DNA of 39,800 nucleotides. Origin: an uncultured Pseudomonadota bacterium (GTDB lineage Bacteria; Pseudomonadota; Alphaproteobacteria; RF32; CAG-239). Under the pieces are notes generated by a model. It searched no databases. It worked only from the letters and a program-made list of their open reading frames with translations, and was not told the origin of the DNA. The position numbers and the translations under genes were made by a program. This document shows positions 33,682 through 36,376 of the stretch, piece after piece; positions within the stretch are counted from its first letter, which is position 1, and every line of letters begins with the position of its first letter. The stretch spans positions 1 through 39,800 of the forward strand of contig CASERH010000006.1 of the NCBI GenBank assembly GCA_949290295.1, read 5' to 3'.

Positions 33682-35607
33682 ATGGTTGCGATTAAATTGC
33701 CTGATGGCAGTGTGATGAATATGGAGAGCGGTGTCAGCGGTTATGACATTGCTGCAAAGATAAGCTCTGGCTTGGCGCAAGCCGCTTTGGCCGTTAAAGT
33801 TAATGATAAACTCCAGGATTTGACTACCCCTATCACTACCGACGCAACCGTGACTATCATCACCGGCAAGGATAAGGAAGGTCTTGCTATCCTCCGTCAC
33901 TCTTGCTCACACGTGATGGCTGAAGCTGTTAAAGAACTCTGGAAAGATGTGCAAGTTACTATCGGACCAGCGATTGAAAACGGTTTTTATTATGACTTTT
34001 CTCGTAAGGAGCCTTTTACGACTGAAGATTTTGAAAAAATCGAAGCTAAAATGCACGAGATTGTTAAGCGCGACGAGAAAATCACCCGTAAGGTCTTGCC
34101 GCGTGATGAGGCTATCAAGTTCTTTAATGATTTGGGTGAGCACTATAAGGCTGAAATTATTCAAGATTTGCCCGAATCCGAAACTATCTCTCTTTATACC
34201 CAAGGTAACTTTACCGATTTGTGCCGTGGTCCGCACGTTCCCTCAACCGGGAAAATCGGAAACGCTTTCAAACTTATGAAAGTTGCCGGCGCTTATTGGA
34301 GAGGTGATTCCACCAAGGAAATGTTGCAGCGTATTTATGCAACTGCCTGGAACACCAAAAAAGAGTTGGATGAGTACCTTAAAATGCTTGAAGAAGCAGC
34401 CAAACGCGACCACCGCAAGCTCGGCCGCGAGATGGATTTGTTCCATTTCGAGCCTGACTACGCTCCCGGTGCCGTCTTTTGGCATGATAAAGGCTATAAA
34501 ATCTACCGCAAATTGATTGAGTATATGCGCAAGCGCCAAGAAAACAACGGTTATATTGAGGTTTCTACGCCGAGAGTTATGGATCGTTGTTTGTGGGAGA
34601 CCTCTGGTCACTGGGAAAAATATGGCGCCCACAACTATTCCGGCCAAACGGAAGATAAAAAATGGTTCTGCATTAAACCGATGAACTGCCCAGGCGGATT
34701 GTTGATTTATAAGCAGGGAATCAAGTCTTATCGTGATTTGCCGCTCAAAATTGCCGAGTTTGGTAAGGTTAACCGCTATGAGGCCTCCGGCTCTTTGATG
34801 GGCTTGATGAGAGTGCGCGAATTTACGCAAGATGATGCCCACATCTTCTGCACGCCTGAGCAGATGGAAGATGAATGCATTACCACGTTGAAACTGATTT
34901 TTGATATTTACAAAGATTTTGGATTTGACAAGGTAAAGATTTATCTTTCTACTCGTCCGGAAAAACGTATTGGCTCAGATGAAATTTGGGATATCTGCGA
35001 GAAGGCTTTGGCCAATGCGCTCACTAAGCATGGCTATGAATTTGAGATTAATGAAGGTGAAGGTGCATTCTATGGCCCCAAACTGGAATTCATCCTCAAA
35101 GATGCCATCGGCCGTGAGTGGCAATGCGGAACCATCCAGGTTGATATGAACCTGCCGCAGCGTTTTGACATCAGCTATATTGGTGAAGACGGTGAGAAAC
35201 ATCAGCCGGTTATGCTGCACAGAGCTTTGTTTGGTTCTATTGAGCGTTTCTTGGGTATCTTGATTGAACACCATGCCGGCAAACTGCCGCTTTGGTTATC
35301 TCCCGAGCAGGTTGTGGTTTGCCCGATTGTCAGCGAGATGAACGACTACGCTGAGGAAGTTGCGGCCAAATTGCGCGCGGCCGGATTGTATGCCAAAACG
35401 GATTTGCGTAATGAGAAAATCAACTACAAAATCCGTGAGCACTCGGTTGCCAAGATTCCGGTTATTGCCGTTGTCGGTGCCAAGGAGAAAGAAAACGGCA
35501 CGGTTACCGTTCGTCGTTTGGGCTCTGAAAAACAAGAGCTTATGGCGCTTGATGACTTTATTGCCGCTCTTAAAAAAGAGGCGACAATGCCGAGCCAAGA
35601 CCGCTAA
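33682..35607 (+). CDS. thrS: Threonine-tRNA ligase
   Basis: 641 residues, essentially full length. Domains in order: TGS (1-65), the editing/SAD domain with H-S-C-S-H-V-M-A-E-A near residue 74 and a later conserved H-Y near 155, the class II core (motif 2 around V-N-R-Y-E-A-S-G, motif 3 L-H-R-A-L-F-G-S-I-E-R-F), and the anticodon-binding domain (from ~545). The catalytic zinc ligands are present: Cys in M-N-C-P-G-G (~334), His in D-D-A-H-I-F (~386) and His in M-L-H-R-A (~512). AAAAAGGAAA precedes the ATG. No T-box or tRNA-like operator is seen in the 17-bp leader gap. It ends in a strong terminator, with no infC following. Confidence 0.98.
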   Translation: MVAIKLPDGSVMNMESGVSGYDIAAKISSGLAQAALAVKVNDKLQDLTTPITTDATVTIITGKDKEGLAILRHSCSHVMAEAVKELWKDVQVTIGPAIENGFYYDFSRKEPFTTEDFEKIEAKMHEIVKRDEKITRKVLPRDEAIKFFNDLGEHYKAEIIQDLPESETISLYTQGNFTDLCRGPHVPSTGKIGNAFKLMKVAGAYWRGDSTKEMLQRIYATAWNTKKELDEYLKMLEEAAKRDHRKLGREMDLFHFEPDYAPGAVFWHDKGYKIYRKLIEYMRKRQENNGYIEVSTPRVMDRCLWETSGHWEKYGAHNYSGQTEDKKWFCIKPMNCPGGLLIYKQGIKSYRDLPLKIAEFGKVNRYEASGSLMGLMRVREFTQDDAHIFCTPEQMEDECITTLKLIFDIYKDFGFDKVKIYLSTRPEKRIGSDEIWDICEKALANALTKHGYEFEINEGEGAFYGPKLEFILKDAIGREWQCGTIQVDMNLPQRFDISYIGEDGEKHQPVMLHRALFGSIERFLGILIEHHAGKLPLWLSPEQVVVCPIVSEMNDYAEEVAAKLRAAGLYAKTDLRNEKINYKIREHSVAKIPVIAVVGAKEKENGTVTVRRLGSEKQELMALDDFIAALKKEATMPSQDR

Positions 35608-35663: not shown

Positions 35664-35692
35664 TTGCAATTTATATTTTTTATGCTTAGACT
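35664..35692 (+). promoter_or_regulatory. Putative promoter of the structured leader RNA
   Basis: -35 TTGCAA (35664-35669), 17-bp spacer, -10 TAGACT (35687-35692, 4/6 match). It lies directly after the thrS terminator and would start transcription near 35698. Confidence 0.5.
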
Positions 35693-35697
35693 AGTTG

Positions 35698-35902
35698 GCG
35701 TACTTCATGGTACGGAGACTACAAAATCTCCTACATAACGCGATGTCGATATAGCACCGTTAAAATCTATATCCCCGACAACTCTTGGTCGGGGAGCTTT
35801 CAGCGTATGTTCAAGGCTTGCCCCAAAGGCTGAGAGGATCATTTCGTTATGTATGATTTTTGTACTCCCCGGCCACCTTACCATAAGGCGGCCGTTTTGT
35901 TT
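35698..35902 (+). ncRNA. Structured leader RNA with conditional-terminator architecture (unassigned riboswitch or attenuator candidate)
   Basis: About 205 nt with no credible ORF. Visible helices in order: CGTAC/GTACG (35699-35703 with 35710-35714); GGAGA/TCTCC (35714-35718 with 35727-35731); a long-range stem TACATAACG (35732-35740) with CGTTATGTA (35845-35853), extended across a 2x2 internal loop by ATG/CAT. Inside it sit three hairpins: GATATAG/CTATATC (35748-35754 with 35767-35773), CCCCGAC/GTCGGGG (35773-35779 with 35788-35794) and CTTTCAGC/GCTGAGAG (35797-35804 with 35829-35836). A terminator follows (35870-35902). Bases 35786-35796 can alternatively pair over 11 bp (one G-U) with 35865-35875, which breaks both the second hairpin and the terminator. 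I could not match it to TPP, FMN, cobalamin, SRP, 6S or tmRNA consensus elements that I know. Confidence 0.65.
35870..35902 (+). terminator. Intrinsic terminator of the leader RNA, just upstream of the lipoprotein gene
   Basis: Stem CGGCCACCTTA (35870-35880) with TAAGGCGGCCG (35884-35894) and one A-C mismatch, loop CCA, then TTTTGTTT. It ends 25 bp before the lipoprotein ATG, leaving room only for the SD and none for another promoter. Confidence 0.8.
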
Positions 35903-35927
35903 GAGTTGAACTTATGGAGAAAAAATC

Positions 35928-36332
35928 ATGCAAAAATTATGTTTATTTCTGGTTGCCATCTGTTTGGCATCTTGCACCACGCTTACCAGGCAGGAGCAAA
36001 ACACCCTACGCAATCTCAAAGCGCAAGGTGTCACCGTAGACAAGCCTGTCGGCAGTTTTGAGGCGCCGGCAAACCCGGGTGCCGCCGGAGCACTCAATCT
36101 CCTACCCGGCATTGGCAATTTTTATCTGGCCAGCGGCAATGGCGGAGACAGTTCTCACTGGCTTTATGGAACCTTAAATCTTTTGACTTGGCCAATATCT
36201 ATTTTGTGGGGAATCCCTGAGGCTGCCATTGATGCCAACCGCATCAATGAGCGAGAACTGATTTACTATTATCAATATGATCGCCAGGGGCAAAAAGAGC
36301 TTGCCACTGCCGGCAAGACTTTGGAAAATTAG
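35928..36332 (+). CDS. Small lipoprotein, conserved but uncharacterised type
   Basis: 134 residues. Signal peptide II: M-Q-K-L-C-L-F-L-V-A-I-C and lipobox L-A-S-C (Cys16). The mature part has an N-terminal charged helix (R-Q-E-Q-N-T-L-R-N-L-K-A), a glycine-rich centre, N-L-L-P-G-I-G-N-F-Y-L-A, a hydrophobic W-P-I-S-I-L-W-G-I-P segment and a final D-A-N-R-I-N-E-R-E-L-I-Y-Y-Y motif. I have an impression of similar small lipoproteins in other proteobacteria but cannot name the family or function. GGAG lies before the ATG. Expression probably depends on read-through of the leader terminator directly upstream. A terminator follows the stop, so it is monocistronic. Confidence 0.85.
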   Translation: MQKLCLFLVAICLASCTTLTRQEQNTLRNLKAQGVTVDKPVGSFEAPANPGAAGALNLLPGIGNFYLASGNGGDSSHWLYGTLNLLTWPISILWGIPEAAIDANRINERELIYYYQYDRQGQKELATAGKTLEN

Positions 36333-36338
36333 CAACAA

Positions 36339-36376
36339 AAAACCGAGGCGGTCTGATCTTACCGTCTCGGTTTTGT
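36339..36376. terminator. Terminator between the lipoprotein gene and the convergent small membrane protein gene
   Basis: A 14-bp stem AAAACCGAGGCGGT (36339-36352) with ACCGTCTCGGTTTT (36361-36374, one G-U), followed by Ts. The stop codon of the convergent ORF (36359-36361) lies at the loop edge. Confidence 0.8.

What the first reader, a model, noticed from the sequence alone, without database searches (positions are those of the whole stretch)
35698..35902. Unassigned riboswitch-like leader with terminator/antiterminator switch upstream of a small lipoprotein
Seen directly: a promoter-like pair, then about 205 nt with five hairpins, three of them inside a 9-bp long-range stem, then an intrinsic terminator ending 25 bp before the lipoprotein ATG. 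Bases 35786-35796 (TGGTCGGGGAG) either form the hairpin with CCCCGAC at 35773-35779 or pair over 11 bp with 35865-35875 (CTCCCCGGCCA), which is the 5' half of the terminator. The two folds are mutually exclusive. Because no other promoter fits between terminator and gene, the gene must rely on read-through, as for a ligand-sensing or protein-controlled attenuator. I could not match the sequence to a riboswitch class that I know.
Basis: partly seen in the sequence, partly recalled or inferred. Interest (0 to 1): 0.78.

Follow-up and report, generated by a model that had tools for sequence, protein, structure and literature searches.

The report
Phage-type antisense leader turned gene switch
A 205-base leader RNA in front of a lipoprotein gene of an alphaproteobacterium belongs to a large family of folded leaders laid out much like the antisense immunity RNA of phage P1, and it likely turns the gene on or off by opening or closing a transcription stop signal.

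Summary
The leader is real and strongly folded (z -5.75) and belongs to a multi-copy RNA family that Rfam does not hold as such: 51 of 94 genomes searched (own included), 183 matches in the window's family (54 genomes), 29 or more in one genome, 32 of 385 genomes of the class; blastn finds kin on hundreds of plasmids. Two long-range pairings covary very strongly. No Rfam riboswitch matches. It is a divergent relative of Rfam sRNA-Xcc1 (87 nt), whose loci carry the same 5' half, so that RNA looks like the 3' half of such a leader. The layout follows phage P1's annotated a1-b1 / C4 / a2-b2 order: 5' sites a1, b1 pair with strands a', b'; in sRNA-Xcc1-type copies the start region carries a second copy (z -8.6). 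In the window's group start-site pairing is weak, and an intrinsic terminator sharing 4-5 nt with the closing helix follows. Best reading: a C4/sRNA-Xcc1-type leader co-opted as an attenuator of accessory genes; its signal is unknown. In one relative all 20 leaders examined sit on 20 different pseudopilin-like genes, each with its own b1/b' letters.

The parts
35664..35692 (+). promoter-like pair TTGCAA / TAGACT, 17-nt spacer
   Evidence: Read from sequence; the pair recurs with small changes at the same distance in relatives L002-L007. Not mapped, and not listed by the consensus scan.
35700..35713 (+). P0 hairpin GTAC..GTAC
   Evidence: Read from sequence; equivalent hairpins with other stem letters in relatives.
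35714..35731 (+). P1 hairpin GGAGA/UCUCC; its loop 35720-35726 (UACAAAA) is site a1
   Evidence: P1: 98.1% of cells paired, 3 of 4 pairs change on both sides.
35858..35864 (+). a' strand UUUUGUA, pairs with P1 loop (pseudoknot PK1)
   Evidence: 98.7% of cells paired, 5 of 6 pairs change on both sides; 25 of 26 rows complementary at all six positions, G-U counted.
35732..35740 (+). site b1, UACAUAACG, 5' strand of the long-range helix
   Evidence: 8 of 9 pairs change on both sides, 92-93% of cells paired.
35845..35853 (+). b' strand CGUUAUGUA, 3' strand of the long-range helix, in the loop of P7
   Evidence: permutation test of the P1+b1 segment with the b'+a' segment, low-GC group n=96, z -44.
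35741..35759 (+). P3 hairpin (two mismatches in this copy)
   Evidence: 96.1% of cells paired in 26 relatives.
35748..35773 (+). PK3: 35748-35754 GAUAUAG pairs with 35767-35773 CUAUAUC
   Evidence: 93.2% of cells paired but only 1 of 6 pairs changes on both sides: moderate.
35773..35779 (+). strand a, CCCCGAC (pairs with b: state that frees c)
   Evidence: 97.4% of cells paired; nearly invariant, so little covariation.
35787..35796 (+). strand b, GGUCGGGGAG
   Evidence: Pairs with a or with c; L028 keeps both pairings through matching changes in all three strands.
35797..35836 (+). P6 hairpin with conserved asymmetric internal loop GCGUAUGUYCA / AAAGG
   Evidence: 99.5% of cells paired, 6 of 8 pairs change on both sides.
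35838..35857 (+). P7 hairpin AUCA/UGAU enclosing b'
   Evidence: 100% of cells paired, nearly invariant.
35865..35874 (+). strand c, CUCCCCGGCC
   Evidence: b/c pairs in 99.2% of 260 cells.
35870..35902 (+). intrinsic terminator; its 5' arm shares 35870-35874 with c
   Evidence: Hairpin plus U-tract after c in 92 of 121 low-GC copies; 4 shared nt in 76 and 5 in 8 of the 92.
35853..35861 (+). AUGAUUUUU, 9-nt complement of the start region 35921-35929
   Evidence: Sequence; ATCAT just before or at the start in 18 of 87 leader genes against 13 of 412 others. Weak, see report.
35916..35930 (+). Shine-Dalgarno GGAG 35916-35919 and start codon 35928-35930
   Evidence: Sequence.
35928..36332 (+). 134-aa lipoprotein-like ORF, accessory, no Pfam or NCBIfam match

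Best explanation
The leader at 35698-35902 has the layout of a C4/sRNA-Xcc1-type antisense leader and likely works as an on/off transcription attenuator of the lipoprotein gene behind it. Shown by sequence: two 5' sites (a1 in the loop of P1, b1 after it) pair with two antisense strands (a', b') in the 3' half, and a third strand b can pair either with a (upstream) or with c (downstream). Inferred: when b pairs with c, the closed RNA holds the foot of the terminator's 5' arm, the hairpin is cut from a predicted -12.1 to -2.8 kcal/mol, and polymerase reads through; when b pairs with a, c is free, the full terminator forms and the gene is off. Inferred from C4 and from the sRNA-Xcc1-type relatives: free a'/b' strands can also pair with the start region, so that released 3' halves could repress. 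What sets the switch in the cell is unknown; my first choice is antisense RNA of the same kind, before a ligand or protein.
For: Family and fold. Terminator coupling: 92 of 121 low-GC copies. Relation to sRNA-Xcc1: sub-threshold full-length matches at the same place and strand in 6 of 13 loci; in RF02221 loci the 5' segment matches a'/b' (z -9.4, n=30, 0/2000), and 23 of 29 have six or more unbroken pairs for both a1:a' and b1:b' (counted). C4 layout: putative a1 and b1 sites, C4, then a2 and b2, annotated in that order in phage P1; the sites' complements are found in C4. a2/b2 at the start in sRNA-Xcc1-type copies: matched -20.2 against mismatched -15.4 kcal/mol, z -8.6, n=29, 0/2000; control with the P6 segment z +0.9. 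Genes behind them: Bro-N 5, Rha 3, SymE 2, P22_AR 1, KilA-N 1 of 29. The own genome holds a second copy that both models hit weakly: RF02221 30.5 bits (cut-off 53) and R1 22.6 bits, E 0.004.
Against: The window copy reaches neither RF02221 (20.9 against 53 bits) nor any C4 match. R1 finds only L235 and a chance-level L214 among 31 sRNA-Xcc1-type loci, and its genome-wide search at E 0.001 lists one copy in the own genome. C4's model does not find sRNA-Xcc1-type cores. The HMM of the sRNA-Xcc1-type 5' element scores none of eight other family loci above the best shuffles. In the low-GC group start-region complementarity is weak (z -2.9, control -1.9); in the GC-rich group it is absent (z +0.8). 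No terminator was called in 29 of 121 low-GC copies and in 17 of 20 GC-rich ones. The lipoprotein lives without the leader in at least 7 of 20 genomes that have it. The nested-fold energies favour termination. No transcript, read-through or processing was measured.
Confidence: 0.6

Rival explanations
1. A metabolite riboswitch of a new class: the conserved P6 internal loop is the ligand pocket and a/b versus b/c is its expression platform.
For: Near-invariant P6 loop; a terminator in 92 of 121 low-GC but 3 of 20 GC-rich copies, and riboswitches too can differ in platform; scattered regulon.
Against: Genes behind share no pathway; a1/b1 and a'/b' match the P1 C4 layout; in sRNA-Xcc1-type copies the start region matches a'/b' beyond chance, which a ligand switch does not need.
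Confidence: 0.17
2. A protein-controlled or polymerase-modifying antitermination leader, like RfaH/JUMPstart, LoaP or the EAR element (named from memory), for horizontally gained surface and defence operons.
For: Genes behind include glycosyltransferases (8 of 86), HTH regulators (6), PD-(D/E)XK nucleases (3), EcoRI-type methylases (2) and outer-membrane proteins; plasmid records matched by GC-rich copies are mostly predicted conjugative (176 of 214, 217 of 292).
Against: No Rfam match for the leader at gathering and only weak ones at E up to 10, sRNA-Xcc1 among them; this unit looks like a single gene; the b/c fold would antiterminate without a factor. No search for a partner protein was made.
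Confidence: 0.12
3. A free-standing trans-acting sRNA gene (promoter, RNA, terminator) that only happens to lie before genes, as sRNA-Xcc1 is described in print.
For: Promoter-like pair and terminator of its own; sRNA-Xcc1 was seen as a ~100-nt band, 88 nt by RACE (PMC2996969, passages).
Against: The picked ORF start lies 35-65 nt behind c in 84 of 98 low-GC copies; start-region match to own a'/b' in sRNA-Xcc1-type copies; in one genome 20 of 20 leaders examined sit on 20 different pilin-like genes. If the Rfam model's ends are the RACE ends, which I did not check, the 88-nt RNA runs from b to just past c, as a trimmed leader would.
Confidence: 0.08
4. A dispersed repeat or mobile element without a role in the gene behind it.
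For: Many copies, tandem copies in L066, plasmid and phage carriage.
Against: Two-sided compensatory change in two long-range helices and P6; 179 of 180 cells paired among 20 paralogues with 20 different sequences.
Confidence: 0.03

Closest known systems
sRNA-Xcc1, Rfam RF02221 (Xanthomonas integron cassettes; here also phages)
   Same: b..c closed domain with P6 and P7-like hairpins; b', then a', just before c; in RF02221 loci an upstream half with a1 loop and b1 is found (23 of 29 with six or more unbroken pairs for both).
   Different: Rfam and the papers seen treat it as an 87-88 nt sRNA. The window copy scores 20.9 bits against a 53-bit cut-off, has another P6 loop and P3, and ends in an intrinsic terminator.
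C4 antisense RNA of phage P1, Rfam RF01695 (and the c4-a1b1 motif named in the table of PMC2864571)
   Same: Order a1, b1, core with a' and b' complements, then the gene; a1/b1 (annotated as putative) upstream of the core and a2/b2 near the start (annotation of AF234172; checked). The 5' element after b1 resembles that of sRNA-Xcc1-type copies (nhmmer 13.3 bits, E 0.056, best of 200 shuffles 8.3): a hint.
   Different: No cross-detection by covariance model. The window gene is a lipoprotein, not an antirepressor; start-site pairing is weak and a terminator is present.
Terminator-type attenuators and riboswitches (general)
   Same: Two exclusive helices sharing strand b, the downstream one overlapping the terminator's 5' arm.
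   Different: No ligand or leader peptide known; long-range a1/a' and b1/b' pairing.

Membership tests
Rfam RF02221 sRNA-Xcc1 | Score over the curated gathering cut-off (53 bits) | tested here: not met
   Window 20.9 bits, full model 1-87; 24-37 bits in 6 of 13 loci.
Rfam RF02221 sRNA-Xcc1 | b..c closing helix with P6-like hairpin and b', a' before c | tested here: met
Rfam RF02221 sRNA-Xcc1 | 88-nt stable RNA | not testable with these tools
   Needs Northern or RNA-seq.
C4-type antisense leader (architecture) | a1 and b1 upstream of the core, complementary to a' and b' in the core | tested here: met
   PK1 and long-range helix; P1 comparison.
C4-type antisense leader (architecture) | a2 and b2 copies at the ribosome site of the gene behind | tested here: inconclusive
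   Strong in sRNA-Xcc1-type (z -8.6), weak in the window's group (z -2.9, control -1.9), absent in GC-rich copies (z +0.8); 9-nt complement in the window; ATCAT 18/87 against 13/412.
Rfam RF01695 C4 | Score over the curated gathering cut-off | tested here: not met
   No C4 match in the window at E up to 10, nor on sRNA-Xcc1-type cores at E up to 5.
C4-type antisense leader | Gene behind encodes an antirepressor | tested here: not met
   Lipoprotein-like ORF here; Bro-N 5, Rha 3, P22_AR 1, KilA-N 1 among 29 sRNA-Xcc1-type copies.
Metabolite riboswitch | Known Rfam riboswitch class | tested here: not met
Metabolite riboswitch | Ligand binding | not testable with these tools
   Needs in-line probing.
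Intrinsic-terminator attenuator | Exclusive helices with terminator overlap, conserved in relatives | tested here: met
   read-through itself not measured.

The most novel reading that the evidence does not exclude
A phage immunity antisense module (C4/sRNA-Xcc1 type) has been domesticated in Alphaproteobacteria into a chromosome-wide set of privately coded attenuators. Every copy keeps the same scaffold but carries its own b1/b' (and often a1/a') letters, so each accessory gene, above all a repertoire of pilin-like genes, can be silenced or released one at a time by RNA pairing, giving surface variation without DNA rearrangement.
Probability: 0.25. Interest if true: 0.9.

Novelty: new variant of a known kind. 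Interest (0 to 1): 0.74.

Why it matters
It gives a likely mechanism to a large leader family that Rfam does not hold. It recasts a known 'trans sRNA' (sRNA-Xcc1), recently discussed as vesicle cargo (PMC12189769, passages), as the probable 3' half of a leader whose target lies in the gene behind. It ties both to the classical C4 immunity layout, and suggests that this layout passed between phages, plasmids and host surface and defence genes, with the start-site target traded for a terminator in one clade. The pairing code makes the idea directly testable by compensatory mutation.

Tried and rejected
6S RNA and tmRNA: the genome has its own copies elsewhere. TPP: a GGGGAGC..GGCTGAGAGG resemblance (recalled) was noted, but there is no TPP match at E up to 10. 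Viral contigs, pattern of the low-GC type: 0. Diversifying selection on b1/b' in G050: divergence 0.55 per site against 0.51 for helix P6, and the number of near-identical codes is as in column shuffles (21 against 24.7 +/- 3.7), so not claimed. RBS pairing as the general rule: rejected for GC-rich copies (z +0.8). Homology of the C4 and sRNA-Xcc1 cores: models do not cross-detect; only the 5' element hints at it (E 0.056). A covariation count on an sRNA-Xcc1-type alignment was not made because the alignment did not keep b1 and b' in register; the register-free permutation test was used instead. The permutation tests do not correct for relatedness. Start codons were picked by a script; by eye some are not the first start behind the leader (L209, L218, L219, L220, L226), and they were kept in the counts. 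Dropped before counts: of the 30 first loci, L021 and L024 were not put in the seed and L002 and L022 were left out as near-duplicates; 12 of 98 low-GC and 4 of 19 GC-rich ORFs were not given to Pfam; L226 and L230 were left out of the alignment.

Full report
WHAT IS THERE. Between thrS (33682-35607) and a 134-aa lipoprotein-like ORF (35928-36332) lies a 205-nt leader. It folds far better than shuffled sequence (z -5.75, 0 of 200). The promoter pair is read by eye and recurs with small changes in L002-L007; the consensus scan did not list it.

A MULTI-COPY FAMILY. blastn with the leader hits 48 of 94 genomes, own included. A covariance model R1 built from 26 copies with a hand-drawn structure hits 51 of 94. 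In the window's own family that is 47 of 54 genomes with 183 matches, summed by me from the table; one genome stops at 29 because only 29 candidates are scored. The other 4 positives lie among 40 genomes outside the family. A class-wide draw gives 32 of 385 genomes (25 of 276 genera), a lower bound because few candidates are scored. R1 was run on 80 of the 106 and hits all 80, with L090 weakest (29.8 bits). Two MAG titles name other phyla (L102, L127); binning errors are possible. The class name is inferred from these titles. blastn with the Mesorhizobium and Acidocella copies finds 214 and 292 plasmid records, mostly Agrobacterium and Rhizobium and mostly predicted conjugative; R1 confirms the six plasmids that I fetched.

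STRUCTURE AND COVARIATION. On 26 sequences: LR (b1/b') 8 of 9 pairs change on both sides; PK1 (P1 loop a1 with a') 5 of 6; P1 3 of 4; P6 6 of 8; P3 4 of 7; PK3 only 1 of 6. Shuffled and slid controls are far below (covariation score 0.534 against 0.205 +/- 0.013 shuffled and at most 0.108 slid). a/b and b/c hardly vary, so they are supported by conservation (97.4% and 99.2% of cells paired) rather than covariation. In L028 all three strands a, b and c carry matching changes, so both rival pairings are kept. The counts do not remove relatedness.

EXPRESSION PLATFORM. I split 141 distinct copies into a low-GC group (121, mostly MAGs of the window's family but also other genomes of the class) and a GC-rich group (20). 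A hairpin plus U-tract follows c in 92 of 121 and 3 of 20. In the 92 its 5' arm shares 4 nt with c in 76 and 5 in 8, the window among the latter. For the window, taking those bases into b/c drops the hairpin from -12.1 to -2.8 kcal/mol; b:c is -20.0 and a:b -12.8 as isolated duplexes. Nested-fold energies favour the terminated state (constrained -67.3 against -59.3; unconstrained -73.9, terminator formed), but the second cannot count the crossing helices, so the balance is open.

RELATION TO sRNA-Xcc1. Rfam gives only a sub-threshold hit, RF02221, over its full length (20.9 bits, E 0.3 over all 4227 families). In 13 loci chosen mostly from outside the window's family, 6 have such hits at 24-37 bits, from b to 7-8 nt past c on the same strand. 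RF02221 itself hits 62 of 398 genomes of the phylum, 39 of them over cut-off. I read upstream of the 30 loci given. Register-free test, duplex energy of the 5' segment with the b'/a' segment, matched against exchanged loci: low-GC n=96 z -44; GC-rich n=19 z -10.5; RF02221 loci n=30 z -9.4; 0 of 2000 permutations each. One by one, 23 of 29 RF02221 loci have six or more unbroken Watson-Crick pairs for both a1:a' and b1:b'; the exceptions are L205, L210, L213, L214, L221 and L232. The own genome has a second copy (contig C49) with 30.5 bits to RF02221 and 22.6 bits to R1, E 0.004, before a lipoprotein-like ORF; R1's genome-wide search at E 0.001 did not list it.

THE C4 LAYOUT. In RF02221 loci the start region of the gene behind repeats the letters of a1 and b1: n=29, matched -20.2 against -15.4, z -8.6, 0 of 2000; the same test with the P6 segment gives z +0.9. 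Eleven of 29 have six or more unbroken pairs for both a2:a' and b2:b' (L206, L211, L212, L216, L221-L225, L233, L234). In L209, L218 and L220 the copies stand before a short upstream start, not before the Bro-N-like start that the script picked (by eye). This order is the one annotated in phage P1: putative a1 and b1 upstream, C4 with their complements, a2 and b2 before icd. A paper states that C4 antisense RNA blocks ant expression in an operon that holds c4, icd and ant1/2 (PMC8198154, passages). ORFs behind RF02221 loci: Bro-N 5, Rha 3, SymE 2, HTH_38 2, P22_AR 1, KilA-N 1, Rap1a 1 of 29 (the table does not say whether these fall on different proteins); PHROG anti-repressor families reach 5 of 29. 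A 2025 paper reports sRNA-Xcc1 upstream of symE in Xanthomonas integron cassettes (PMC12444791, passages). The 88-nt RACE product (PMC2996969, passages) has the length of the b..c+8 domain, so it could be a trimmed leader; that is inference. C4's model does not detect RF02221 cores. An HMM of the 5' element of 21 RF02221 loci scores best at the expected place in P1 (13.3 bits, E 0.056; best of 200 shuffles 8.3), but no better than the shuffles in eight other family loci, the window's and L235 included: a hint for C4, nothing for the window.

THE WINDOW'S CLADE DIFFERS. Start-region pairing is weak in the low-GC group (z -2.9, 6 of 2000, control z -1.9) and absent in the GC-rich one (z +0.8). 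The window does have a 9-nt complement (35853-35861 with 35921-35929), and ATCAT next to the start is enriched (18 of 87 against 13 of 412), partly through related leaders. The terminator is the more general platform here. Hence the reading: C4/sRNA-Xcc1-type layout, terminator in place of the RBS target.

WHAT IT SITS ON. Pfam on 86 of 98 low-GC ORFs: glycosyltransferase 2 in 8, HTH_3 6, RgpF 3, PDDEXK_4 3, BspA-type LRR 3, EcoRI methylase 2, outer-membrane families and others. On 15 of 19 GC-rich ORFs: HTH_3 3, RovC_DNA-bd 2, DUF4268 1. The lipoprotein itself is patchy: 20 of 94 genomes. By comparing coordinates, the leader is directly upstream in 8 of those 20 (G000, G008, G015, G016, G019, G025, G032, G034), absent there in at least 7, and undecided in 5 whose R1 matches are not all listed. 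In G050, 20 of 20 fetched copies precede 20 different pseudopilin-like ORFs. Their b1 sequences are 20 of 20 distinct, 179 of 180 cells pair with b', and 16 of 380 cross pairings reach 8 of 9. P6 varies nearly as fast, so selection for private codes is not shown.

LITERATURE LIMITS. Searches for sRNA-Xcc1 (18 papers), c4 antisense RNA (17), c4-a1b1 (1), sRNA-Xcc1 with symE (1), sRNA-Xcc1 with C4 antisense (1) and a mixed query (2) showed, in the listings and in the passages I read in six papers, no statement that sRNA-Xcc1 has this 5' half or a C4 layout. Chen et al. 2011, the main sRNA-Xcc1 paper, is not held, so I cannot exclude it there. Of c4-a1b1 I saw only the table entry.

VERDICT. Observation confirmed; interpretation partly supported. 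New variant of a known kind. Shown are the family, its helices, the terminator overlap and the a1/b1 pairing; the switch, its direction and its trigger are inferred.

Noticed in passing
G050 loci L242-L261: 20 of 20 fetched leader copies (of 29 or more) lie 40-62 nt upstream of 20 different pseudopilin-like genes (GRSMIEMLGVLAIIGVLSVGG...), each with its own matched b1/b' letters.
   Followed up: partly
L235 (G000 contig C49, 276-361): Second copy in the window's own genome, hit weakly by both RF02221 and R1, before another lipoprotein-like ORF.
   Followed up: partly
L066 1573-2222: Three tandem copies of the leader, the third missing its middle, each followed by a terminator-like run and a start.
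   Followed up: no
L200, L201, L014, L028, L061, L121, L126, L130, L131, L142, L192: By eye the leader repeatedly precedes XRE-type regulators (most with PNPIDVYVGNRIRxRR..FQQIQKYE-like letters), on rhizobial plasmids as well as in MAGs.
   Followed up: no
L199-L204, after c: Plasmid copies carry a further hairpin with GCGGGGGCGNACCGC (L199 in part); picked starts lie 60-75 nt behind c in 9 of 19 GC-rich copies. Its role is open.
   Followed up: no
L109, L202: On a Mesorhizobium scaffold and a Ketogulonicigenium plasmid the leader precedes a DUF2285-type gene next to a replication-initiator gene.
   Followed up: no
L238 (Vibrio phage Cla): sRNA-Xcc1-type leader directly before a short kilA-N ORF that overlaps an anti-repressor gene, as icd and ant1 do in P1.
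   Followed up: partly
window 36339-36374: Strong terminator-like hairpin behind the lipoprotein, so the unit is probably one gene.
   Followed up: no
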